Positions 7,258 to 61,176 of a DNA stretch of 64,000 nucleotides are shown in pieces. Made by a program: the position numbers and the translations under genes. Under the pieces are notes generated by a model. That model did not search any database. It saw only the letters and a program-made list of their open reading frames with translations, and was not told the DNA's origin. The stretch's first letter is position 1; each line of letters opens with the position of its first letter. This DNA comes from Betaproteobacteria bacterium (GTDB taxonomy: Bacteria; Pseudomonadota; Gammaproteobacteria; Burkholderiales; SG8-41): NCBI GenBank assembly GCA_028291945.1, contig JAQGNH010000229.1, positions 1 through 64,000 of the forward strand, read 5' to 3'.

Positions 7258-9156
7258 TCACGCCGGTCTCTGAGCCGCCGCGATTCTTCGTCGCTTGGCA
7301 AACGCAAGGGCGAGCCCGGCAAGCGCGACCAGTAAGGGCACCAGACCGATGTTGACCACCTTGGTCCAGAACTGAAGCCGTTCGCTCTCCACACGCAGGT
7401 TCTTGCGCACCTCTTTGAGCTGCACACGACTCTCGGCCGCTTTCTTGCGAAAGTTGTCGATCTCGGATTGCTGCTCGGCTGTGAGTATCGCGCTCGTTCC
7501 GACCCCGGGTTTTCCTTTCTGCAGCGCCTGCAGCTTCTCCTGAGTTTGGTTGACGCTGTCTTCGAGCTCCTTGATCTTGCCGAGATACTGCTGTTGTGCG
7601 CGGCTCTCCATCCTCTGGATGACAGTGAGAGGGCGGGTAAACGACGCCCGGCTGCGCAGGCTCATCAGGTTCTGATCGCCTGAGAATTGCTCGACCAGCC
7701 CCTGCGCGAACGACAGATTTCCATTGCGCGGCACGACAAGTTTCTGGCCGAACATGTCCTGGACCTCGACGGCTGCGCCGTCGGTGAGTAAATCGACATC
7801 CGCAACGAGCACCACCTGGTTCTCTGCAGCCGCTTCGCGCAGATGCGGCACAGCCTTCTCGTCAGTCTTCGGCGTTTCCGCTTTCGGATCCCTCGGCATC
7901 ATCGGGGCCGGCTTGCCATTCGGGAAAGCCGTCTTGAACTTCCCCGCGAGGCGGATCGCAATGGGATTTTCTTCGCCTGAAGGCTGAAAACCACGGGTCG
8001 AAGGCTCGCCGGAAAGCGTCGCGATGATGAGATCGACGAGCATCGAGTTCTTCGAGGTGTGGGCAAGCGCGGTCTCCTTGAGGCCTTCAGCGGGTTTACC
8101 CTTGAACACACCGCTGAACGGCACGAGCATCGTGCCCACCTGGCTCATCACGACATCGTCCTGATTGAGCGCCTCCGGGGGCAACGAGAGCAGTGTTGGC
8201 AACAGCCGTGGACCTGCGCCGCTGGGGTACGTGAGATCGGCTATGACCTGGTTGAGCGGGACATCGATGCCCCACGCCTTGAACAGGGTATACAGCGTCG
8301 ATTGACCCGCCTGCGCTCCGCCGAATGGATTCTGGAGGTCGGGCTGCTGATCGAAATACGCGTACGGATCTACGAACGCGATCAGCTTGCCGCCGCGAAG
8401 GATGAACTGATCGATCGCATACTCGGTTTCCTCGGTGATATTGCGAGGGTGTATGACGAGCAGGACCTTGATGTCATCGTCGATCTTTTTCGCGTCGAGC
8501 TCGACTTTGCGCACGTCGAAATTGCGCTTCAACTCCGAACCGAACACCCACGGTTCGGTCGGCTGCTGTTTCGACATCGGATTCAACGGCCGACCCAGCA
8601 CGGGAAGCGCGCTCATCAGGCCGACGACCGGTTTTTTGGTTGCCGATACCTGAGCGATGGCGCGCGTGATGTCGTATTCGAGCAGGCGCTCGCGGTCGGG
8701 CGACAGGACCGGTATTGCCGCCTTCTGATCGAGGAATGATGCAGAGAGACCCAGGTAGAACTTCTCGCCCGTGTCCGTCTGCTGGCCTTCGACGTTGTCG
8801 AGCTGAGCCGACTCCTCAGCGTCTGAATCCGGCTCGGGGTTGAACCGCTCGATGATCACTTTGCCTTTCGAAGCCGAACGATACTCGTTCAGTATGTCTT
8901 CTACGCGCTGAGCGAACGTCTTCAGAGCGACGGGTACGGCATTGCTGCCCTGCGTATAGTAGAAACGGATACGAACGGGCGCTTCGAGCTTGGAAAGAAT
9001 CGCTTTGGTTCCAGGCGAGAGCGTATACACGTGGCCTTGCGTCAGATCCACCCGCGCGTTGAACGCGCTCACGATGAAATTCGCCGCGACGAGTATGACG
9101 AAGAGGGCGATCAGGCCACCCGCTGAATACCACAGTGTTTCACGAGTACGTTTCAT
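7258..9156 (-). CDS. GldG-family ABC-type transport auxiliary protein
   Basis: Protein of 632 aa resembling GldG / the ABC-type uncharacterised transport system domain. It has an N-terminal transmembrane helix (LIALFVILVAANFIVSAF, about 14-31) followed by VDLTQGHVYTLSPGTKAIL, a very characteristic GldG opening. There is a long periplasmic region, a coiled-coil stretch near 530-590 (KIKELEDSVNQTQEKLQALQ), and a C-terminal helix (VVNIGLVPLLVALAGLALAFA) before a basic tail. It follows the permease gene by 4 bp. Despite the name, gliding is not implied; proteobacterial homologues are of unknown function. Confidence 0.82.
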   Translation of the reverse strand: MKRTRETLWYSAGGLIALFVILVAANFIVSAFNARVDLTQGHVYTLSPGTKAILSKLEAPVRIRFYYTQGSNAVPVALKTFAQRVEDILNEYRSASKGKVIIERFNPEPDSDAEESAQLDNVEGQQTDTGEKFYLGLSASFLDQKAAIPVLSPDRERLLEYDITRAIAQVSATKKPVVGLMSALPVLGRPLNPMSKQQPTEPWVFGSELKRNFDVRKVELDAKKIDDDIKVLLVIHPRNITEETEYAIDQFILRGGKLIAFVDPYAYFDQQPDLQNPFGGAQAGQSTLYTLFKAWGIDVPLNQVIADLTYPSGAGPRLLPTLLSLPPEALNQDDVVMSQVGTMLVPFSGVFKGKPAEGLKETALAHTSKNSMLVDLIIATLSGEPSTRGFQPSGEENPIAIRLAGKFKTAFPNGKPAPMMPRDPKAETPKTDEKAVPHLREAAAENQVVLVADVDLLTDGAAVEVQDMFGQKLVVPRNGNLSFAQGLVEQFSGDQNLMSLRSRASFTRPLTVIQRMESRAQQQYLGKIKELEDSVNQTQEKLQALQKGKPGVGTSAILTAEQQSEIDNFRKKAAESRVQLKEVRKNLRVESERLQFWTKVVNIGLVPLLVALAGLALAFAKRRRIAAAQRPA

Positions 9157-9160
9157 GTCC

Positions 9161-9904
9161 TTAACCTGCGCGCTGGTTGCGGATGATCAGGCCGGTCGTG
9201 AAAAGCGCAAAGCCGATCACTGATGCGAAAAAGATGACATCTCGAGCATCGAGAACTCCGCGCTGGAAGCCTTCGAAGTGCGTCATGACCGAAAATGCCG
9301 CGACGATCTGGGTAACAATCGGATTTGCGAAACGCGTCAGCAGATCGGTGACGGGCGTATAGCCTGCGAGTATGAGGAACAGGCAGATCATGACCGACAG
9401 AATGAAGCTGATCACCTGATTGCGCGTCATCGCGGAGGTCATGCAGCTGATGGCCAGGTACGCGCCAGCGAGCAGTAGGCTGCCGACATATCCGGCCAGG
9501 ATGACTCCGTTATCCGGATTGCCGAGCCAGTTCACAGTGATGATCACCGGAAACGTCAGTGCCAGCGCGAGCGCCAGGAACAGCCACGACGCGAGAAACT
9601 TTCCGACGATGGCCTGCCAGGTCGTGATCGGCAGCGTGAGCAGAAGCTCGAGCGTGCCGAGGCGTCGCTCCTCTGACCACAGCCGCATGCCAACCGCGGG
9701 AACGAGGAACAGGTAGAGCCAGGGGTGCCATGTGAAGAACGAGACTAGAGATGCATCGCCGCGCTCGAAGAAGTTGCCCACCGTGAATGTAAAAAAGCCG
9801 GTCAGCAGAAGGAAAATGACGAGGAAGACGTAAGCGATCGGCGAGGTGAAGTAACCGCCGAGCTCGCGCTTCATTATGGCTTTGATATTGGCCCAGGCGT
9901 TCAT
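9161..9904 (-). CDS. ABC transporter permease, ABC-2 type (GldF-like)
   Basis: Inner-membrane permease of 247 aa with six hydrophobic segments, of the ABC-2 / NatB-GldF type. The N-terminus (IKAIMKRELGGYFTSPIAYVF) and the cytosolic loop SEERRLGTLELLLTLPIT are family hallmarks. Its ATG overlaps the stop of the ATPase gene (ATGA at 9901-9904), which indicates translational coupling and a two-component ABC transporter. The neighbouring GldG-like and DUF4340 genes are likely accessory subunits. Substrate unknown. Confidence 0.87.
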   Translation of the reverse strand: MNAWANIKAIMKRELGGYFTSPIAYVFLVIFLLLTGFFTFTVGNFFERGDASLVSFFTWHPWLYLFLVPAVGMRLWSEERRLGTLELLLTLPITTWQAIVGKFLASWLFLALALALTFPVIITVNWLGNPDNGVILAGYVGSLLLAGAYLAISCMTSAMTRNQVISFILSVMICLFLILAGYTPVTDLLTRFANPIVTQIVAAFSVMTHFEGFQRGVLDARDVIFFASVIGFALFTTGLIIRNQRAG

Positions 9905-18540: not shown

Positions 18541-19329
18541 TCACTTACGTTCCGTGTCGATCCGGTCGAGCTCGCCGTCGAGCGCGGCGTCTGAAGGCGA
18601 GCGGTACTCGTCTTTCTCCGGCGGTTTGACGAAGAACCGCGCAGCGAACAGTCCTAGTTCATAAAGCAGACACATTGGAATCGCGAGCAACAATTGCGAG
18701 ACGACGTCAGGCGGCGTGACTACCGCAGCAACGACGAACGCGCCGACCACGAAATAAGGGCGCACGTTTCTCAATTGCTCCAGGCTTACGACGCCCATGC
18801 GTGCAAGCAGGACCACGGCAATCGGCACTTCGAACGTCACGCCGAATGCAAGAAACATGGTGAGTACGAAATTCAGATACTGCTCGATATCCGGCGCAAC
18901 CGAGATACTCTTCGGCGCGATCCGGTTGACAAAGCTGAACACCACACCGAAAACGAAAAAATAGCAGAACGCAATTCCCAGCACGAAGAGCACAGTGCTC
19001 GCGACGACCAGCGGCAGGACGAGCTTCTTCTCGTGCGAATACAGCCCAGGCGCGACAAAGGCCCACGCCTGATAGAGTACGTACGGCAGAACGACGAGGA
19101 ACGCGACCATGCCCGCAATTTTTACGGGGATCAGGAACGGCGTGATGACGCCGGTCGCGATCATCTTCGATCCCTGAGGCAATGATTGAATCATCGGATA
19201 TGCAAGCAGGTCGTACAGCTCCGATGCAAATGGAAACAGGCACAGAAAGATTATCCCTATCGCGATGAGCGACCGCAGCAATCGGTCGCGCAACTCCATG
19301 AGATGGGAGATGAAGGTGTCTTCGCTCAT
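18541..19329 (-). CDS. tatC: Sec-independent protein translocase TatC
   Basis: Six-helix receptor component of the twin-arginine translocase. MSEDTFISHLMELRDRLLRSL is the canonical N-terminus and decides the ATG at 19329 over the GTG five codons upstream. The protein (262 aa) shows the expected helices, including FLVVLPYVLYQAWAFVAPGLYSHEKK and FLAFGVTFEVPIAVVLLARMGVVS, with the functionally important Glu in FGVTFEVP. The last gene of tatABC. Confidence 0.95.
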   Translation of the reverse strand: MSEDTFISHLMELRDRLLRSLIAIGIIFLCLFPFASELYDLLAYPMIQSLPQGSKMIATGVITPFLIPVKIAGMVAFLVVLPYVLYQAWAFVAPGLYSHEKKLVLPLVVASTVLFVLGIAFCYFFVFGVVFSFVNRIAPKSISVAPDIEQYLNFVLTMFLAFGVTFEVPIAVVLLARMGVVSLEQLRNVRPYFVVGAFVVAAVVTPPDVVSQLLLAIPMCLLYELGLFAARFFVKPPEKDEYRSPSDAALDGELDRIDTERK

Positions 19330-19351
19330 GCCGCGGCCCGGCACTTACGGC

Positions 19352-19813
19352 TCAAGCGCGCTTCTCACTGGACGCGGTAGACGGATCGAGTTCGAGGTTG
19401 AGCTGCGCGCTCGCCTCGGCAGCCGTGAGCTCGCCTGGCGCCGGCGCGACTCCCGTCTCGGCCGGCGGTGAGATCCCGGCTGACGCTGGCGGCGGAGTGG
19501 GCGCCAGGTTCTCGGCCGCCATGGTGTTCGCCTCCTGCGCGATCTTCTGCAGTTCCGCTTCGGTCGCATTGACTTCTTGCGTGACGGACCGTTCAAAAGA
19601 ACGCGCCGCGTCCTGCATGCTCGTCTGGAGCTTTCTCAGCTCGTCCAGCTCCATTTCGCGACTGATGTCAGCTTTTACGTCGTTCACGTAACGCTGCATG
19701 CGTCCGAACAGATGGCCGAGAGTGCGAGCAACTTTTGGCAGCCGCTCCGGGCCGATCACGATCAGGGCAACCACCGCGATGACCATGAGCTCGGAAAAGC
19801 CGATATCGAACAT
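19352..19813 (-). CDS. tatB: Sec-independent protein translocase TatB
   Basis: Single-span Tat component that works with TatC in signal-peptide recognition. MFDIGFSELMVIAVVALIVIGPERLPKV carries the short N-terminal helix and the essential Glu and hinge Gly-Pro. An amphipathic helix follows (KVARTLGHLFGRMQRYVNDVKADISREMEL), then a long Ala/Glu/Pro-rich tail to residue 153. The length and FDIGFSEL start separate it from TatA. It is 22 bp upstream of tatC. Confidence 0.95.
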   Translation of the reverse strand: MFDIGFSELMVIAVVALIVIGPERLPKVARTLGHLFGRMQRYVNDVKADISREMELDELRKLQTSMQDAARSFERSVTQEVNATEAELQKIAQEANTMAAENLAPTPPPASAGISPPAETGVAPAPGELTAAEASAQLNLELDPSTASSEKRA

Positions 19814-35484: not shown

Positions 35485-36252
35485 ATGTTCGGTAACGTTA
35501 ATGGGATGACTGATCCGAGTGAACCGAGTGCAACAGCGCTGTCGTTTCAATGCGTGAGTAAGGGGTTCGGTGACACGCCCGTTCTCGACGCCGTAACGTT
35601 CAATGTCGATCGGGGGCAGCTGTTCGGCCTTGTCGGAGGCAACGGCGCAGGCAAAACCACACTGATCAAATGTCTGCTCGACTTTTGCCGGCCTACGGCC
35701 GGTGAGATTCAGATATTCGGCGATTCAAACCGTTCCACCCACTCCCGTACCGGCGTCGCCTTCCTGCCTGAGCGTTTCAGCCCGCCTTATTATGTGACGG
35801 GGCGGGACTTCCTGCGATACATGTCGGAGCTTCATCGTAAACCATACGACGAAGAGCTCGCGAAGCGGACCTTCGAGGACCTCGATCTCGACGCCTCGGC
35901 ACTCACGAGGTCCGCTCGTACGTACTCTAAGGGCATGACACAGAAACTGGGACTTGCCGCGTGCGTTTTGTCCGGCAAACCCTTACAGATTCTAGATGAG
36001 CCCACGAGCGGCCTCGACCCCAAAGCGCGTGCGCTGCTCAAACGGCGCTTGCGAAGCTTGCGCGAGGCAGGCGCAACCGTGTTCTTCACGACTCATACGC
36101 TCGCAGACGTGGAAGAGATCTGCGACCGTATGGCGGTATTGCACCGGGGCCGTCTGCGGTTCGTTGGCACCCCCGTCGCCCTGCGAACGAGCTACGGCGG
36201 CGATCTGGAGCATGCGTATCTAGCATGCGTTGATGAGGCGATCGCCGCATGA
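35485..36252 (+). CDS. ABC transporter ATP-binding protein (no adjacent permease)
   Basis: ATPase of 255 aa. Walker A GGNGAGKTT, signature-equivalent YSKGMTQKL, Walker B LQILDEPTSGLDP and switch His in FFTTHTLADVEEI are intact. The YSKGM form is that of ABC-2/NatA-type ATPases, whose partners are six-helix permeases. No permease adjoins it; the best candidate is the ABC-2 permease at 53631-54401, at the other end of the pilus locus. Its stop overlaps the response-regulator ATG (ATGA). An alternative start is the ATG at 35506. Confidence 0.87.
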   Translation: MFGNVNGMTDPSEPSATALSFQCVSKGFGDTPVLDAVTFNVDRGQLFGLVGGNGAGKTTLIKCLLDFCRPTAGEIQIFGDSNRSTHSRTGVAFLPERFSPPYYVTGRDFLRYMSELHRKPYDEELAKRTFEDLDLDASALTRSARTYSKGMTQKLGLAACVLSGKPLQILDEPTSGLDPKARALLKRRLRSLREAGATVFFTTHTLADVEEICDRMAVLHRGRLRFVGTPVALRTSYGGDLEHAYLACVDEAIAA

Positions 36253-37763
36253 AGGTAGTTGTGGATCGCCCGCTATCTGGCACAATAGGTCCGACTCCAG
36301 GGGATTGGGGACCGGGCGTGACCTATCAAAACAAGCCGGACCTGCTGATCGTGGATGATGATCCGCTCATCACGGACACGCTTGATTTCGTGCTGAGCCG
36401 CGATTTCAGTGTCTACGTCGCCGAGTCGCGCGGCCAAGTCAAAAGCCTTCTTCGCCAGCTCGACGCACCGCCACAGCTCGCCCTCATCGATCTCGGGCTG
36501 CCACCTACACCCCACCGCCCCGACGAAGGATTTCGGCTGGTCACCGAGCTGATTGCGTACTCGCCGGGCATGAAGATCGTGGTGCTGTCTGGACAAAGCG
36601 AGGAAACAAACGCCCGGCACGCGCGCACGCTCGGCGCGGTCGAGTTCGTGCACAAACCCTGTGAACCCGACGCGCTGAGACAGCTGCTGAAGCACGCGCT
36701 GCAGTTGAACGATACCGAAGTCCTCGCAGCGTCCAAAGGGGGACTGCTTGGCAATAACGCCCTCGTCCACAAGTTGCGGCAGCAGATCAACCAGTTCGCG
36801 AACGCGCCATTTCCCGTGCTCATCGAAGGGGAGTCCGGCAGCGGCAAGGAGCTGGTCGCGCATGCGCTGCATTCGAAGAGCCACCGATCAACACGACCCT
36901 TTCTCGCGTTGAATTGCGCCGCCATCTCGCCTGCGCTGGTCGAGCCGACACTTTTTGGCTATGCGAAAGGCGCGTTCACCGGCGCGACAAGCTCCCGGCC
37001 CGGGTACTTCGAAGACGCGCATGCCTCAACTTTGTTTCTCGATGAAATCGGCGAGCTGCCACTGGAGTTGCAAGCCAAGTTGCTGCGCGTGCTGGAAAAT
37101 GGCGAATTCCAGCGTGTCGGTGAAACGCAGAGTCGCGTATCGAGCGCCCGGGTTATCGCGGCCACCAATCGCGACATGCGCCAGGAAATACGCAGTGGGC
37201 GTTTTCGCGCGGATCTTTACCACCGCCTATCGGTTTTTACTTTAAACGTGCCGCCGCTGCGCGAGCTCGGCGACGATAAGGCGCTGCTGCTCGATCACTT
37301 CCGCGAGTTCTATGCGCGACAGGCTGGAATTCGAGCCTTTGAACTGGATTCGCGCGCGATGGCGCTGTGGCTGAACTACGGGTTTCCAGGAAACGTTCGT
37401 GAGCTCAGGAACATCGTCATCCGGCTCACCACGAAGTGCCCCGGCCAGTCAGTAACCAGCGAGCAACTGCAAGCAGAGCTGGACATGGAGGCCTCGGATC
37501 TGGATACGGCGCTCTTACCGATCGAGGATTTCAGCGGTGTGCTCGATACGGCCAAGCGGCAGTTGCAGATGCAGAAGGTGTTTAATCTGGATCACACCCT
37601 CGAGCAATGGGAACGCGGGTATGTCGAGGCGGCGCTCGCAATAACCCAAGGGAATCTTACTCGCGCCGCCAAGCTCCTTGGGATCCATCGAACGACGCTC
37701 TACAGCCGCATGCAGAATTATGTCGACGTGGGGCAGCCGATCAAATCGTCGCTCTCGAGATGA
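36249..37763 (+). CDS. sigma-54-dependent response regulator (NtrC family)
   Basis: Two-component activator of RpoN promoters, 504 aa. Receiver domain (about 30-150): acidic pocket VDDDP, phospho-acceptor Asp in ALIDLGLP, and Lys in VHKPCEPD. AAA+ domain (about 165-400): Walker A EGESGSGKE, the sigma-54-contact motif GAFTGA, Walker B TLFLDEIG, and the R-finger region NRDMRQEIRSGRFRADLYHRL. C-terminal HTH (about 465-490): GNLTRAAKLLGIHRTTLYSRM. The start overlaps the ABC gene; a GTG at 36318 (MTYQNKPDLLIVDDD) is a shorter option. No kinase adjoins; the kinase at 51819 is the nearest. Confidence 0.92.
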   Translation: MKVVVDRPLSGTIGPTPGDWGPGVTYQNKPDLLIVDDDPLITDTLDFVLSRDFSVYVAESRGQVKSLLRQLDAPPQLALIDLGLPPTPHRPDEGFRLVTELIAYSPGMKIVVLSGQSEETNARHARTLGAVEFVHKPCEPDALRQLLKHALQLNDTEVLAASKGGLLGNNALVHKLRQQINQFANAPFPVLIEGESGSGKELVAHALHSKSHRSTRPFLALNCAAISPALVEPTLFGYAKGAFTGATSSRPGYFEDAHASTLFLDEIGELPLELQAKLLRVLENGEFQRVGETQSRVSSARVIAATNRDMRQEIRSGRFRADLYHRLSVFTLNVPPLRELGDDKALLLDHFREFYARQAGIRAFELDSRAMALWLNYGFPGNVRELRNIVIRLTTKCPGQSVTSEQLQAELDMEASDLDTALLPIEDFSGVLDTAKRQLQMQKVFNLDHTLEQWERGYVEAALAITQGNLTRAAKLLGIHRTTLYSRMQNYVDVGQPIKSSLSR

Positions 37764-51818: not shown

Positions 51819-53474
51819 TCACGCGACCCGCGTAGTGCGTAACCCGTCCCGCGCGCTGTGCTGGCTCGCCAGCACAAAGGAGACATTGCCGATCTCGTTT
51901 GTCGCGAGCGAAAGCGTGTAACCGAAGTCCGCAGCAAGCCGGCTCGACTGGTACAAACCGACACCGAATCCGGTCTGTGAGTGGACCGGCGCCGAAAACA
52001 AGTCTTGCGCCGCGCTCCTGCTGACCGCGCGTCCATTGTCGCTCACTGTCAACGTGCCACGACCGACGGCCGAAAAAATGACTCGCACGCTCAAACCTAC
52101 AGACTCCGTAGACTTCTTCAATGCGTTCTCGATGAGATTGTCTGCAACGCTATCGAAGAGCTCCGCGGGTAGCTTGGTGTCGCACATAAACCCATCAAGC
52201 TTGAAGTGGACGTTGCGATTGCTATAACGCTGCATCAGATTGTTCCACCACGCTGCAGCGTCGATCGCGCTGGCAGGACCGTCTCCCGGACTGCGGAGCT
52301 TTTCGAGCGTACTGTTCAAACGCTGAGTGATTTGCGGAAGTTGACGCTGCATCAGCGCCTGGAGCGCGGGCCCTTGTTCGGGCGTACTGCTAGCGACTGC
52401 CGAACATAACGATTTCAGAGACTGCAGCAGATTCTTGACCTCGTGAGTGAGGCGCGCGCCAGTCTCGTAGATGGCTTGGGTGTATGCGTTTTGGCGCTGC
52501 ACCTGCTCGCGCTGCTTCGATTCGTAGAAGTGACCCACCATCTGTGCCAGCAGTTTCAGGTGCAGCAGTATTGCGGGCGAGACCGTCCAGCGCGTATGGA
52601 TGATGAGCTTGAGATCACCAGACTCCAGAGCCGTCGAGCACGTTGTGCGTGCACCGACTTCGCCCTGCGCTGCTCGAGTTTGCCACTCCACACCTTTAAC
52701 CCACGGCATGTGCAGCATGTGTTGCATAGCTTGGGCAAGAAAGCGCTGAGGTTGGCTCTCTTCCTGGGCGAGCTCCGCGAGGCGCTGCACCCACCGCTCG
52801 AAGGGCAGGCCGAGGCTCATGAGGTAGCTCGAGAGCAGATAACCGAGCCCGGCGAATCCGCTGTGAGGATACCAGAGCCACGACAGGCCGATCAGCAGTA
52901 CGGCGATACCAAAAAGAGTCTGGGCCAGCGCAATCACATAGTTGCCCTGACTCACCTCACGAACAACGAAGCTGCCAAGGACTAGGGCCACGACAAGAAG
53001 GAAGAACAGAAGACTGTAAAACAGATCTACTCCAACCGGGTTCTGGGGCAGACGCGGCGGTGCTCGTATGACAAGAATGGCAAGCGGAATCAGCGGCAGC
53101 GCGTAGCGTACGAGCGTGGCAAGAGCGGGCTCGATCACCTGGTCCGTAAACAACTGAGGTACGACCCAGATCAGCAGCATTGAAAGAAGGTATAGCGCTG
53201 CCAGGATGGAAATCATCCTTTGGCCGCGCTCGGCCAAGCGCGGCACGCTGCCTCCGATCAGGCCGACGAGCACGGCAAGCCATACTGCCATGAGCCACCA
53301 ACTGAGCCAACCTACCAGCAGGCAGGCAACAGCAACGACCGAAAATGCCTGTCCCGGCTCTATCTCGCGCTCACCGCGCCAGACCGGCTGCCAGATAAGA
53401 AAGAGCCCGAGATGCGCGAGAAGAAATGCTCGAGGCCACCAATCCTCGATGTCCCACGCGATCGAAGCATGCAA
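51819..53474 (-). CDS. membrane sensor histidine kinase
   Basis: Histidine kinase of 551 aa with a TTG start, since no other start exists upstream in frame. The N-terminal 220 residues are hydrophobic with about seven helices, the next 100 resemble a GAF-like region, then H-box RLTHEVKNLLQSL (His344), N-box DNLIENALKK, and G-boxes VSDNGRAVS and GFGVGLYQSSRLA. It lies opposite to the flanking genes, converging on copy 2. The domain layout is like PrsK/PilS-type kinases. No response regulator adjoins it; the sigma-54 regulator at 36249 is the best partner by inference. Confidence 0.86.
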   Translation of the reverse strand: MHASIAWDIEDWWPRAFLLAHLGLFLIWQPVWRGEREIEPGQAFSVVAVACLLVGWLSWWLMAVWLAVLVGLIGGSVPRLAERGQRMISILAALYLLSMLLIWVVPQLFTDQVIEPALATLVRYALPLIPLAILVIRAPPRLPQNPVGVDLFYSLLFFLLVVALVLGSFVVREVSQGNYVIALAQTLFGIAVLLIGLSWLWYPHSGFAGLGYLLSSYLMSLGLPFERWVQRLAELAQEESQPQRFLAQAMQHMLHMPWVKGVEWQTRAAQGEVGARTTCSTALESGDLKLIIHTRWTVSPAILLHLKLLAQMVGHFYESKQREQVQRQNAYTQAIYETGARLTHEVKNLLQSLKSLCSAVASSTPEQGPALQALMQRQLPQITQRLNSTLEKLRSPGDGPASAIDAAAWWNNLMQRYSNRNVHFKLDGFMCDTKLPAELFDSVADNLIENALKKSTESVGLSVRVIFSAVGRGTLTVSDNGRAVSRSAAQDLFSAPVHSQTGFGVGLYQSSRLAADFGYTLSLATNEIGNVSFVLASQHSARDGLRTTRVA

Positions 53475-53630: not shown

Positions 53631-54401
53631 ATGAAGAACAGGATTGTCGCTATAGCGCGCTACACGATTCTCGAAGCGGTGCGCACGCGCCTTCTCTTGC
53701 TCACGGTCGCCGTCATCGGCGTTCTGATTGCTGGCAGTTTTCTTGTTCGCGAGATCGCTGTCACCGAAAGCTCGAGATTTCAAACGACATTCTATGCAGC
53801 GACTGTCCGATATGCCTGCGTGTTCATCGTGGCGCTGTACGCGATCGCCAGCATCGCTCGAGAATTCCAGGACAAGGGTCTTGAAGTCGTGCTCGCATTG
53901 GATCTACCGCGCTCTAATTATATCCTCGGTAAACTCGCCGGCTTTCTGGTCATCGGCGCGGCGATAGCAGCCACTGCGAGTCTTCCGCTCATTCCTTTCG
54001 CAGGCTGGCAACCGGTAGCACAGTGGGCTATATCCCTCGCGTTCGAGCTCGGTGTCATCGTCGCGTTGAGCCTCTTTTGCGCCATCACTTTCAACCAGTT
54101 GATGCCGGCGGTCAGTTTCGTACTCGCGTTCTATCTCCTCGCGCGCGCTTTGACAGCAATACGCCTGATAAGCGCCAATCCGATTGCGGACGCAGCAGCC
54201 GTGTCACACCAGATTATGACGCGGCTTGTGGAAGCGCTCGCATTGGTAATCCCTGCGCTTGACGCGTGGACCCGCACGGCGTGGCTTGTCGACAATCCGG
54301 CCTCCGGCCCAGCGCTGTTCTCGATTGCTGCGCACAGCGTGCTATTCGTAGCTATCTTTGCAAGTGCTGCCGTCTTCGACATGCATCGGAGAAACTTCTG
54401 A
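53631..54401 (+). CDS. ABC-2 type permease (likely partner of 35485 ATPase)
   Basis: Six-helix membrane protein of 256 aa from the ATG at 53631 (MKNRIVAIARYTILEAVRTRLLLL); the track start at 53220 is an antisense shadow of the kinase. YTILEAVRTRLLLL and IASIAREFQDKGLEVVLALDLPRSNYILGKLAG are the ABC-2 permease hallmarks. It has no adjacent ATPase; the ABC ATPase at 35485 is the only unpaired one in the locus. A possible -10 TATACT lies at 53597-53602, with no good -35. Substrate unknown. Confidence 0.82.
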   Translation: MKNRIVAIARYTILEAVRTRLLLLTVAVIGVLIAGSFLVREIAVTESSRFQTTFYAATVRYACVFIVALYAIASIAREFQDKGLEVVLALDLPRSNYILGKLAGFLVIGAAIAATASLPLIPFAGWQPVAQWAISLAFELGVIVALSLFCAITFNQLMPAVSFVLAFYLLARALTAIRLISANPIADAAAVSHQIMTRLVEALALVIPALDAWTRTAWLVDNPASGPALFSIAAHSVLFVAIFASAAVFDMHRRNF

Positions 54402-54436
54402 TACGCCGATTTTTTGCCCAACCCGATGCACGTCCG

Positions 54437-55144
54437 GTGTCAGCCGTCCCGCGATACGCAACGGCAATACTGGCTTTGGCACTCGTTGCGCAGATCAGCT
54501 GGCAGGCTTCGGAACCGCAACCGATTGCGCGCGCAGCCGCTTTGGGCAAGCCGGCGGACGTTTCATGGCTTCGCGTGGTTTGTGATGGGGAACCGATTGG
54601 CCTCGCGCAGATGCTGGTGCTCTACCTGCAGGCATTTGACAACCAGCCGGGCGTCAGCATGCCTTTTAGGGCCTTGGACTACGGCGCTGTCGAGCAGTGG
54701 TTGAGTACCGTGATCGATCTGGATCCGTTCACCCAATACCCCATCATGCTGGCTGCGCAGGTCTATGCGCAGGTTCCGGATGAGCAAAGGCAGCGTCGAA
54801 TGCTGGATTTCGTGCACCGCGAATTTCTCCGCGACCCCGAAAGGCGCTGGCGCTGGCTCGCGCACGCTGCGATCATCGCCAAGCACCGGCTGAAAGACAT
54901 GCCCCTCGCTCTCGAGTATGCGGAAGACATCGCCCGCCACGCAAAGGGGGCGCTCGGGTGGGCGCGGCAAATGCGGATTTTCATCCTGGAAGATATGGGA
55001 GAAGTTGAAGCCGCTGCAGTACTGTTGGGCGGTTTGTTGGCGACTGGCGAAGTAACGGACAGTGCCGAGCTTCACTTCCTGACAGAGAGGCTCGAGGCGC
55101 TCAAAGGCGCCGAAAAATCGTCGAAACCGTCTGAGAATCGTTAG
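54437..55144 (+). CDS. hypothetical TPR-like protein between permease and pilin
   Basis: I do not recognise the family. The 235 aa protein from a GTG at 54437 has an N-terminal hydrophobic stretch (YATAILALALVAQISWQA) suggestive of a signal or anchor, then helical repeats such as RRMLDFVHREFLRDPERRWRWLAHAAIIAKHRLKDM and ALEYAEDIARHAKGALGWARQMRIFILEDMGEVEAAAVLLGGLL. It looks like a solenoid of about four helix pairs. No ribosome binding site is clear, and the start could be elsewhere up to 54402. It lies 35 bp after the permease, so they may be translationally linked. Confidence 0.65.
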   Translation: MSAVPRYATAILALALVAQISWQASEPQPIARAAALGKPADVSWLRVVCDGEPIGLAQMLVLYLQAFDNQPGVSMPFRALDYGAVEQWLSTVIDLDPFTQYPIMLAAQVYAQVPDEQRQRRMLDFVHREFLRDPERRWRWLAHAAIIAKHRLKDMPLALEYAEDIARHAKGALGWARQMRIFILEDMGEVEAAAVLLGGLLATGEVTDSAELHFLTERLEALKGAEKSSKPSENR

Positions 55145-55152
55145 CCAATGCG

Positions 55153-55181
55153 TTGTTCTGTTGAATCTCTACGGGTATTAT
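55153..55181 (+). promoter_or_regulatory. candidate sigma-70 promoter upstream of the pilin gene
   Basis: -35 TTGTTC (55153-55158) and -10 TATTAT (55176-55181) with a 17 bp spacer. The -10 matches five of six bases; the -35 three of six. Would start about 58 nt upstream of the pilin ATG, giving a longer leader than the sigma-54 site. Confidence 0.35.
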
Positions 55182-55193
55182 AGCCTCCAGCGC

Positions 55194-55210
55194 TTGGCAC
55201 AGTTCATGCA
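55194..55210 (+). promoter_or_regulatory. sigma-54 (RpoN) -24/-12 promoter of the pilin gene
   Basis: TTGGCACAGTTCATGCA: -24 GG (55196-55197) and -12 GC (55208-55209) are separated by exactly 10 bp, with TGGCAC matching the consensus upstream element fully. Only two positions differ from YTGGCACGRNNNTTGCW. Predicted start near 55221 leaves a 25 nt leader containing the GGGGGG ribosome binding region before the ATG at 55246. Confidence 0.7.
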
Positions 55211-55245
55211 GATGGCCAGCGAGTGTCACTTGGGGGGAACTGAAC

Positions 55246-55917
55246 ATGGGCAAGCGAGAATCGGGTTTTACGCTGATCGAGATTGCGATCGTGCTGGTGA
55301 TTATCGGGCTATTGTTGGGCGGCGTCCTCAAAGGCCAAGAACTGATTACAGGCGCCCGCGTGCGGAATTTCATCCAACAACAGGACGGGGTCAAAGCCGC
55401 GTATTTTGGATTTCTTGACCGCTACCGCGCGCTTCCCGGCGATTACCCCGGCGCGGTCGCGAATATTGCGAACATGTCGACAGCAGCGTGCGGCGGTGGT
55501 AATGGCAATGGGGACGGCAGCATCACGACGACCAATAACGAAAATATTCTCGTTTGGGAGCATCTATCGAGGTCGGGCTTCATCAATGGCACCTACACGT
55601 GTGCCGCTACGGCAAGTAGCACCACATCGCCCACCAATCCCTACGGCCAAGTTCTCAATCTAATTTTCGACGCGACATATCAGAGTCCGTCTGGCATTAC
55701 CAGCACGAGCCGCCACAATCTCCAAACGGGCACCAATGTTCCTTCCGACATCCTTGCAGAGGTTGACCGTAAAGTTGACGACGCTAATGCGTCGACAGGC
55801 TCTTTTCGCGGATCTGGTACGGCCGGCAGTTGCTGGTCAACTGTCGCTGGAACTACCTTTGGCGTCTGGGCGGCCGCGGCGCCGACGAATGCCTGTGCTG
55901 GCGCCACGCTTTTCTAG
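55246..55917 (+). CDS. type IV prepilin (canonical GFTLIE)
   Basis: Likely major or abundant pilin, 223 aa. Leader MGKRESG is cleaved before FTLIEIAIVLVIIGLLLGGVLKGQELI, a model N-methylated helix with Glu at +5. The globular part has paired cysteines (ACGG, TCAA, SCWS, ACAG) and Gly/Asn/Ser-rich loops. TTGGGGGGAACTGAAC supplies a strong ribosome binding site. A sigma-54 promoter lies 35 bp upstream and an intrinsic terminator follows, so it is probably a monocistronic, separately controlled gene, as major pilins usually are. Confidence 0.9.
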   Translation: MGKRESGFTLIEIAIVLVIIGLLLGGVLKGQELITGARVRNFIQQQDGVKAAYFGFLDRYRALPGDYPGAVANIANMSTAACGGGNGNGDGSITTTNNENILVWEHLSRSGFINGTYTCAATASSTTSPTNPYGQVLNLIFDATYQSPSGITSTSRHNLQTGTNVPSDILAEVDRKVDDANASTGSFRGSGTAGSCWSTVAGTTFGVWAAAAPTNACAGATLF

Positions 55918-55939
55918 CCTGAGTAGCGACCGTCTGCGA

Positions 55940-55961
55940 GAGCCACTTCGGTGGCTCTTTT
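55940..55961 (+). terminator. intrinsic terminator of the pilin gene
   Basis: GAGCCAC-TTCG-GTGGCTC stem of 7 bp with a stable UUCG tetraloop, followed immediately by TTTT. Begins 23 bp after the pilin stop. Confidence 0.9.
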
Positions 55962-59733: not shown

Positions 59734-61176
59734 ATGAAGCACTCCCTCCAACTCCGCCTATCTCAGCACCTAACCCTTACCCCGCAGCTGCAGCAGTCCA
59801 TTCGGCTGCTTCAGCTTTCGACGCTGGAGCTCAACCAGGAATTGGAGCGGTTTCTGCAGGACAATCCCCTGCTGGAGCGGGATGAAGGCGCCGGCGAGCA
59901 GCTTGGCATTCCGCCGGGCCTGAACGGCGAGTCAGGGCCGGGCGAACGCGCAGCGGAAGCGAATACTGCCGGCAACGACGACAACCCGGTGCAGCCTGAA
60001 GGTGATGCCTTCACGAGCGCACAGGATGCGCCTTACGGCAGCGGCGGACGCGAAGACGGCGACGACGATGATTACCCTCAGGTTGCCGCCGAAAACCCGA
60101 CGCTGCGCAATCACCTCATCATGCAGCTTTCGCTCAAGAAGCTGTCCGAGCGCGACCGCACGCTCGTCACACTGCTGATCGAGTCGCTCGACGAGGACGG
60201 TTATCTTTCGCAGGACCTGGCAGAGATCCACGCTATGCTCCCCGAAGAAATCGGCGTGGAACCCGAGGAGCTGCAGATCGCGCTCAAACACCTGCAGCAC
60301 TTCGAGCCCACTGGCGTCGGTGCGCGCAATCTGGGTGACTGCCTGGCTTTGCAGCTCACGGCTCTTCCCGAGTCGACGCTTTTCCGGACTGAGGCGCTCG
60401 ACGTCGTGCGCAATCACCTCGAAGCGCTGGCCTCGCGCGACTTTACGCGCCTGAAAAAAATCCTTCGCTGTGACGACGCTTGTCTGCGCGAGGTACAGAA
60501 GCTCATCACGAGCCTCAATCCACGGCCGGGGCGTGAGTATTCGTCCGAGGACACGCGCTATGTCGTGCCTGATGTGGTCGTTCGCAAAGTTAAGGGTGTG
60601 TGGGTTGCGTCGCTGAATCCGGAGGCGATGCCCAAGCTGCGCATCAACCGGCTCTACGCGGACATTCTCTCGCGTGCGCGAAGCTCGGGATCTCAGCAGC
60701 TTGCCACTCAGTTGCAGGAAGCGAAATGGCTCATCAAGAATGTCCAGCAACGTTTCGACACGATATTGCGAGTCGCCCAGGCGATCGTCGACCGGCAGCG
60801 CCATTTTTACGAGCACGGTGAAGTAGCCATGCGCCCGCTCGTCCTGCGCGAAATTGCGGAAGCGCTCGACCTGCACGAGTCGACAGTGTCTCGCGTGACA
60901 ACCCAAAAGTTCATGCATACGCCCCGCGGCATATTCGAGCTCAAGTATTTCTTTGGCAGCCACGTCACGACCGAGAGCGGCGGCTCGGCCTCGAGTACCG
61001 CGATTCGCGCGCTGATCAAACAGCTCGTAAGTGCAGAGAATTCGCGCAAGCCCTTGAGCGACAGCCAGATTTCAGAGATTCTGGGCCAGCAAGGCATCGT
61101 AGTGGCGCGTCGAACCGTAGCGAAGTACCGCGAGTCGCTGCAGATCCTGCCCGTGAACCTGCGCAAAACCCTTTAA
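59734..61176 (+). CDS. rpoN: RNA polymerase sigma-54 factor
   Basis: Alternative sigma factor for nitrogen, pilin and other genes. 480 aa: region I ([44 protein letters not shown]), acidic region II ([11 protein letters not shown]), core-binding region III, HTH, and the RpoN box [10 protein letters not shown] near the C-terminus. Region order and length are normal. Sits after lptB and before hpf, its usual place in proteobacteria. The activator at 36249 and pilin promoter at 55194 may use it. Confidence 0.97.

What the first reader, a model, noticed from the sequence alone, without database searches (positions are those of the whole stretch)
55194..55210. Pilin gene carries a near-consensus sigma-54 promoter
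TTGGCACAGTTCATGCA has GG-N10-GC at the exact spacing and TGGCAC intact. It lies 35 bp upstream of a canonical GFTLIE prepilin gene with a strong ribosome binding site and a clean terminator. rpoN (59734) and a GAFTGA activator (36249) are in the window. RpoN control of pilA through PilS/PilR is established in Pseudomonas; here the pilin belongs to an MSHA-like set.
Basis: partly seen in the sequence, partly recalled or inferred. Interest (0 to 1): 0.65.

Follow-up and report, generated by a model that had tools for sequence, protein, structure and literature searches.

The report
Sigma-54 switch for an MSHA-like pilin
The pilin gene has a genuine, evolutionarily conserved sigma-54 promoter and also a previously unmarked pair of activator-binding sites upstream, which together with a nearby kinase and activator gene look like a dedicated on/off switch for one surface filament across many environmental betaproteobacteria.

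Summary
TGGCAC-AGTTC-ATGCA (55195-55210, GG-N10-GC) is the best sigma-54-like site in the window. One match alone is weak: the genome has no excess of this pattern. Conservation settles it. A -24/-12 element lies within 100 bp of the start in 43 of 44 orthologous first pilin genes that have the histidine-kinase gene next door (random windows 4%), in at least 11 families.

Two 14-bp palindromes (GYCGAAAAATCGWC-N6-GTCGAAAWTTCGAC), exactly 20 bp apart, sit upstream of the promoter, here at 55109-55142, overlapping the end of the preceding gene. The leave-one-out score is 33.9 against 11.1 for the next site in 128 kb. Third-codon-position and frame evidence show that the DNA, not only the protein, is conserved.

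The likely activator is the NtrC-type regulator at 36249-37763 with the kinase at 51819-53474 (minus strand). They flank the msh block and co-occur perfectly in 23 unambiguous genomes. Pilins in genomes lacking both also lack core element and enhancer.

It works like PilS-PilR/pilA, but the operator differs and the pair fails the PrsK/PrsR models: a new variant of a known kind. No transcript or binding data exist.

The parts
55195..55210 (+). sigma-54 core promoter: TGGCAC (-24) and ATGCA (-12), GG-N10-GC
   Evidence: conserved upstream of orthologues
55109..55142 (+). upstream activator sites: palindrome 1 GCCGAAAAATCGTC (55109-55122) and degenerate palindrome 2 GTCTGAGAATCGTT (55129-55142), 20 bp start to start; overlaps the 3' end of the upstream gene
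   Evidence: (leave-one-out score 33.9, next 11.1)
55246..55917 (+). prepilin gene (GFTLIE, 223 aa), the target
   Evidence: PF07963 and TIGR02532 over cut-off; matches in 48 of 60 genomes
55232..55238 (+). ribosome binding site GGGGGGA
   Evidence: Sequence
55938..55959 (+). terminator-like hairpin after the pilin gene
   Evidence: 9-pair stem; 0.9 such sites expected by chance in the stretch
36249..37763 (+). NtrC-type enhancer-binding response regulator (receiver, AAA+ with GAFTGA, Fis-type HTH), candidate activator
   Evidence: orthologues
51819..53474 (-). multi-TM histidine kinase, candidate partner of the activator
   Evidence: HATPase_c; hydrophobic N-terminus and HEVKN box read from sequence; co-occurrence
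59734..61176 (+). rpoN (sigma-54)
   Evidence: PF00309, PF04963, PF04552
37805..51787 (+). MSHA-like pilus machinery: mshM, mshL, mshN, mshE, mshG, mshI-like, mshJ-like, mshK-like and pseudopilin-like genes
   Evidence: names for I, J, K rest on position and conservation
35485..36252 (+). ABC-2 type exporter ATPase, first gene of the block, overlapping the activator gene
53631..54401 (+). ABC-2 type permease of the block
   Evidence: PF12698 below cut-off; conserved
54266..55144 (+). conserved protein gene (ORF; real start probably later) whose 3' end contains the enhancer

Best explanation
The site is the core of a sigma-54-dependent promoter that drives a pilin gene belonging to an MSHA-like type IV pilus cluster. 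RNA polymerase with sigma-54 sits at 55195-55210 and cannot open DNA alone. The membrane histidine kinase (51819-53474) phosphorylates the response regulator (36249-37763). The regulator binds the two palindromes at 55109-55142, two helical turns apart, and as an ATP-driven ring it contacts the polymerase and starts transcription at about 55220-55222. Shown here: the core element, the paired enhancer, their conservation, the domain make-up of both regulators and their co-occurrence. Inferred: the kinase-regulator partnership, binding of the regulator to these palindromes, the start site and the signal.
For: Core: 43 of 44 kinase-linked first pilin genes have a -24/-12 element within 100 bp of the start (null 4.0%), 35 of 44 strong (null 0.66%); later tandem pilin copies in the same kinase-plus-TPR setting 0 of 4. 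Enhancer: best pair spacing is 20 bp in 40 of 46 loci, mean pair mismatches 6.7 against about 11.3 at other spacings, shuffles almost never reach it. A leave-one-out matrix picks 55107-55144 at 33.9, next 11.1 in 128 kb. The pattern gives 28 hits in 60 genomes, nearly all upstream of this pilin, and 0 for the reversed control. DNA-level constraint: third-codon-position information 1.28 against 0.63 upstream, TCG serine codons at one position where the rest of the gene favours AGC; other frame, after the stop codon, or no such gene in L041, L091, L102, L078, L104. Regulators: kinase and activator orthologues both present in 15 and both absent in 8 genomes tested for both. Pilins in kinase/activator-less genomes (L077, L084, L145, L146, L149) lack core element and enhancer.
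Against: No transcript start, binding or mutant data. In this window palindrome 2 is degenerate and the -12 box is ATGC. Enhancer-to-promoter distance varies from about 85 to 245 bp between loci, and in L134 the enhancer lies about 1.4 kb upstream. The enhancer is recognisable mainly inside the family and fades in distant families that keep the core element (L144, L148). L082 has core and enhancer but no kinase orthologue and only a partial activator match. The counts are not corrected for shared descent. The sigma-54 matrix uses weights I set from the textbook consensus.
Confidence: 0.85

Rival explanations
1. The promoter is sigma-54 dependent, but another of the genome's enhancer-binding proteins is the main activator, and the linked regulator serves something else.
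For: The genome has seven strong Sigma54_activat proteins. L082 has core and enhancer with no kinase orthologue and only a partial activator match.
Against: Only this activator is linked to the block; kinase and activator presence matches promoter and enhancer presence in the other genomes tested. The enhancer is essentially single-copy per genome, which fits a dedicated activator.
Confidence: 0.12
2. The GG-N10-GC is a chance match and the pilin is read from an ordinary sigma-70 promoter or by read-through from the upstream permease/TPR genes.
For: The exact pattern is no commoner in the genome than its reversed control. A weak TTGTTC-17-TATTAT can be drawn at 55153-55181.
Against: Conservation of the core element across families. 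The consensus scan finds no sigma-70 site reaching 9 of 12, and the TATTAT box is altered in genus relatives.
Confidence: 0.03
3. The paired palindromes are only the conserved C-terminal coding sequence (AEKSS...) of the upstream gene.
For: In most loci the first palindrome is in frame with that gene and encodes a recurring AEKSS-like end.
Against: Synonymous positions are conserved far above the rest of the gene. The pair persists in another frame, after the stop codon, or without the gene. The 20-bp repeat spacing is not a multiple of three and both units are palindromes.
Confidence: 0.04

Closest known systems
PilS-PilR/RpoN control of pilA (Pseudomonas aeruginosa; also Myxococcus and Geobacter type IVa pili)
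   Same: Membrane kinase, NtrC-type regulator and sigma-54 promoter on a pilin gene, regulators encoded in or near the pilus cluster.
   Different: MSHA-like rather than type IVa machinery. The operator is a 20-bp-spaced GTCGAAAWTTCGAC pair rather than the TGTN11AGA and GTCT elements named for PilR (PMC6058289). Kinase and regulator genes lie at opposite ends of the block. Kinase and regulator were not aligned to PilS/PilR.
PrsK-PrsR regulation of PEP-CTERM genes (PMC1569441)
   Same: A conserved activator motif plus a sigma-54 -24/-12 motif, a transmembrane kinase and an NtrC-type regulator; PrsR is the best-scoring named model for the activator.
   Different: Regulator 356 bits against a 502.6 cut-off; kinase has no PrsK hit. 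The PEP-CTERM motif 1 ends in TTTACA about 63 nt upstream, unlike this palindrome pair. The target here is a pilin, essentially one per genome.
MSHA pilus of Vibrio and relatives
   Same: mshM-L-N-E-G order, MshL-type secretin, MshEN ATPase, no prepilin peptidase in the cluster (the genome's one Peptidase_A24 hit is on another contig).
   Different: Adds an ABC-2 exporter, a kinase and a sigma-54 activator. The pilin is a separate 223-aa type with only weak N-terminal similarity to MshA.
Myxococcus xanthus pil cluster with pilRS and pilGHI (PMC6060248)
   Same: Pilus cluster that carries kinase, NtrC-type regulator and an ABC-transporter set.
   Different: Resemblance is in arrangement only; no homology of the ABC parts to PilGHI was tested.

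Membership tests
sigma-54-dependent promoter | GG-N10-GC with TGGCAC and TTGC-type boxes | tested here: met
   one departure in the -12 box (ATGC)
sigma-54-dependent promoter | Position and element conserved upstream of orthologous genes | tested here: met
   43 of 44
sigma-54-dependent promoter | Upstream activator-binding sites | tested here: met
   Paired palindromes, (sequence evidence only)
sigma-54-dependent promoter | Transcription start 11-13 bp after GC and RpoN dependence | not testable with these tools
   Needs 5'-end mapping and an rpoN mutant
PilS-PilR/pilA system | Kinase plus NtrC-type regulator linked to a pilin with a sigma-54 promoter | tested here: met
PilS-PilR/pilA system | Orthology of kinase and regulator to PilS and PilR | not tested
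   No PilS/PilR reference was aligned; best named regulator model is PrsR
PilS-PilR/pilA system | PilR operator hallmarks (TGTN11AGA, GTCT) | tested here: inconclusive
   The consensus operator is GTCGAAAWTTCGAC; GTCT appears at site 2 only in this genus; TGTN11AGA was not searched
PrsK-PrsR | Regulator above the TIGR02915 cut-off and kinase matching the PrsK model | tested here: not met
   356.2 against 502.6 bits; kinase has no PrsK hit
MSHA pilus cluster | mshE, mshG, mshL, mshM homologues in order | tested here: met
   MshL 244.1 against a 250.2 cut-off (just below), MshEN domain, T2SSF, ExeA-type ATPase
MSHA pilus cluster | MshA-type major pilin | tested here: inconclusive
   Only weak N-terminal similarity to pilins; the structure model was poor, mean pLDDT 51.6

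The most novel reading that the evidence does not exclude
The conserved kinase, its activator and the ABC-2 exporter form one sensory unit: exporter or pilus-assembly activity is sensed by the kinase and passed through the activator to a single enhancer hidden in the end of the exporter operon, so that pilin is made only when the machine is ready.
Probability: 0.2. Interest if true: 0.7.

Novelty: new variant of a known kind. Interest (0 to 1): 0.5.

Why it matters
It gives an MSHA-like pilus of widespread, mostly uncultured betaproteobacteria a dedicated kinase-activator-enhancer-promoter circuit with a sequence-defined operator, so the wiring can be tested in any cultivated member. It also shows a conserved enhancer lying inside the 3' end of a coding gene, and offers natural losses (genomes without kinase, activator, enhancer and core element together) as controls.

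Tried and rejected
My first pattern had the -24/-12 spacing one base short and was discarded. A sigma-70 promoter was considered and not supported. Purely coding conservation of the enhancer was tested and rejected. An IHF-like site (WATCAANNNNTTR) between enhancer and promoter is seen at similar positions in several long-spacing clades (7 of 44 perfect, null 1%) but not in this window, so it is not part of the claim. The AlphaFold model of the pilin was poor and no fold search was made. Eight literature searches listed no title or abstract describing this circuit; the closest statement found is that PilA is enriched in predicted sigma-54 regulons of betaproteobacteria (PMC12316311).

Full report
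Observation. The sequence and coordinates are as stated: TGGCAC at 55195-55200 and TGCA at 55207-55210, GG-N10-GC, 36 bp before the ATG at 55246. It is the best sigma-54-like match of both strands of the window (16.1; next 14.6). The pattern alone is not special in the genome: 14 occurrences in 7.1 Mb against 20 for the reversed control. The case therefore needed comparison.

Comparison. The pilin protein was searched in 60 related genomes: 48 have a match. Records found with names are betaproteobacterial metagenome assemblies, many labelled Burkholderiales. In 28 of the first 30 loci the best-scoring sigma-54-like site in 250 bp is an element at a similar place, mostly starting 50-75 bp before the start codon; the two exceptions are unlinked paralogues. 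In a cleaned, non-redundant set, 43 of 44 first pilin genes with the kinase next door carry an element of score 7.9 or more within 100 bp, against 4.0% of random windows; 35 of 44 reach 12, against 0.66%. These come from at least 11 families. The one exception, L142, has a truncated first pilin gene and a degenerate element. Later tandem copies with kinase and TPR gene nearby have none (0 of 4); two other later copies (L143, L066) do have an element of their own.

Neighbourhood. The block is syntenic in most of the loci long enough to show it: ABC ATPase, activator, mshM-L-N-E-G-I-J-K, pseudopilins, kinase on the other strand, ABC permease, conserved TPR-like gene, pilin, then kdsD-kdsC-lptC-lptA-lptB-rpoN. 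rpoN is thus part of a housekeeping neighbourhood and is not by itself evidence for the promoter.

Enhancer. Palindrome scanning of the upstream regions gave GTCGAAAWTTCGAC-like sites, which turned out to be pairs with a start-to-start distance of 20 bp: best spacing 20 in 40 of 46 loci, mean pair mismatches 6.7 at 20 against about 11.3 at other spacings; in 230 shuffles the best value was 9 mismatches (once), while 44 of 46 real loci had 9 or fewer. A matrix built without this window scores 55107-55144 at 33.9; the next best place in 128 kb scores 11.1. A degenerate pattern finds 28 places in 60 genomes and none for the reversed control; nearly all lie upstream of this pilin. Exceptions are G020:C78, near an MFS-type gene with a weak sigma-54-like site, and G007:C214; in L134 (G056) the pair lies about 1.4 kb upstream, inside the kinase gene.

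Coding confound. In most loci the pair overlaps the last codons of the upstream gene, so protein conservation had to be excluded. Third codon positions in the palindromes carry 1.28 bits on average against 0.63 in the 40 codons before, and several exceed all 40 of those. At one position 22 of 23 serines use TCG, while upstream serines use TCG 4 times in 67. The pair is in another frame in L041, wholly or partly after the stop codon in L102, L091 and L101, and present without that gene in L078 and L104. The DNA itself is under constraint.

Regulators. The 36249 protein has a receiver, a full Sigma54_activat domain and a Fis-type HTH. Its best named model is the PEP-CTERM regulator PrsR, well below cut-off (356.2 against 502.6). 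The kinase has only a general HATPase match. Orthologues of the two were sought separately: both present in 15 genomes, both absent in 8, with one ambiguous (G062). In G055 and G057 the activator is far from the kinase-pilin pair, yet both are kept. Pilins in genomes lacking both regulators (L077, L084, L145, L146, L149) have neither element. In L145 a different kinase-activator pair sits between the TPR gene and the pilin. Non-independence by descent is not corrected.

Mechanism. The standard reading is signal, kinase, phosphorylated activator on the paired palindromes, ATP-driven remodelling of sigma-54 polymerase, transcription from about 55220. In long-spacing loci an IHF-like site may help looping; here the enhancer starts only 86 bp before the core and no IHF-like site is seen. 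The signal is unknown; linkage with the ABC-2 exporter is suggestive only.

Known or new. Sigma-54 control of pilins by PilS-PilR is established in Pseudomonas (PMC6058289), rpoN1 is needed for twitching in Ralstonia (PMC4371752, title), and a 2025 survey finds PilA enriched in predicted sigma-54 regulons of betaproteobacteria (PMC12316311). PrsK-PrsR shows the same logic for PEP-CTERM genes with a different operator (PMC1569441). What appears new is this regulator pair, its operator, its link to an MSHA-like cluster and the enhancer inside a coding end. I saw no description of it among the papers the searches listed; the library holds only open-licence papers.

Noticed in passing
35485-36252 and 53631-54401: The two halves of an ABC-2 type exporter lie at opposite ends of the msh block, next to the activator and the kinase respectively, and this split is conserved in nearly all block loci.
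   Followed up: partly
L145 (G049), about 7600-9500: The same block with the usual kinase lost and a different kinase-activator pair inserted between the TPR gene and the pilin; no sigma-54 element was found before that pilin.
   Followed up: no
L104 (G023:C49), 18813-19754: An unlinked second pilin gene with a strong sigma-54 element and a weak enhancer pair, a possible second target in trans.
   Followed up: partly
L135 (G020:C78), 1391-1503: An enhancer-like pair (26.9) about 60 bp before a weak sigma-54-like site near an MFS-type transporter gene.
   Followed up: partly
L142 (G058:C11), 1500-2100: First pilin gene truncated at its start, lacking GFTLIE, with a degenerate -12 box (TGGC).
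   Followed up: partly
Upstream regions of L058, L063, L071, L045, L065, L094, L102: A perfect IHF-like consensus between enhancer and promoter, at about the same position within clades and only in long-spacing loci.
   Followed up: partly
L092 (G003:C30) and L105 (G040:C3): Unlinked pilin paralogues without enhancer, apparently outside this control.
   Followed up: partly
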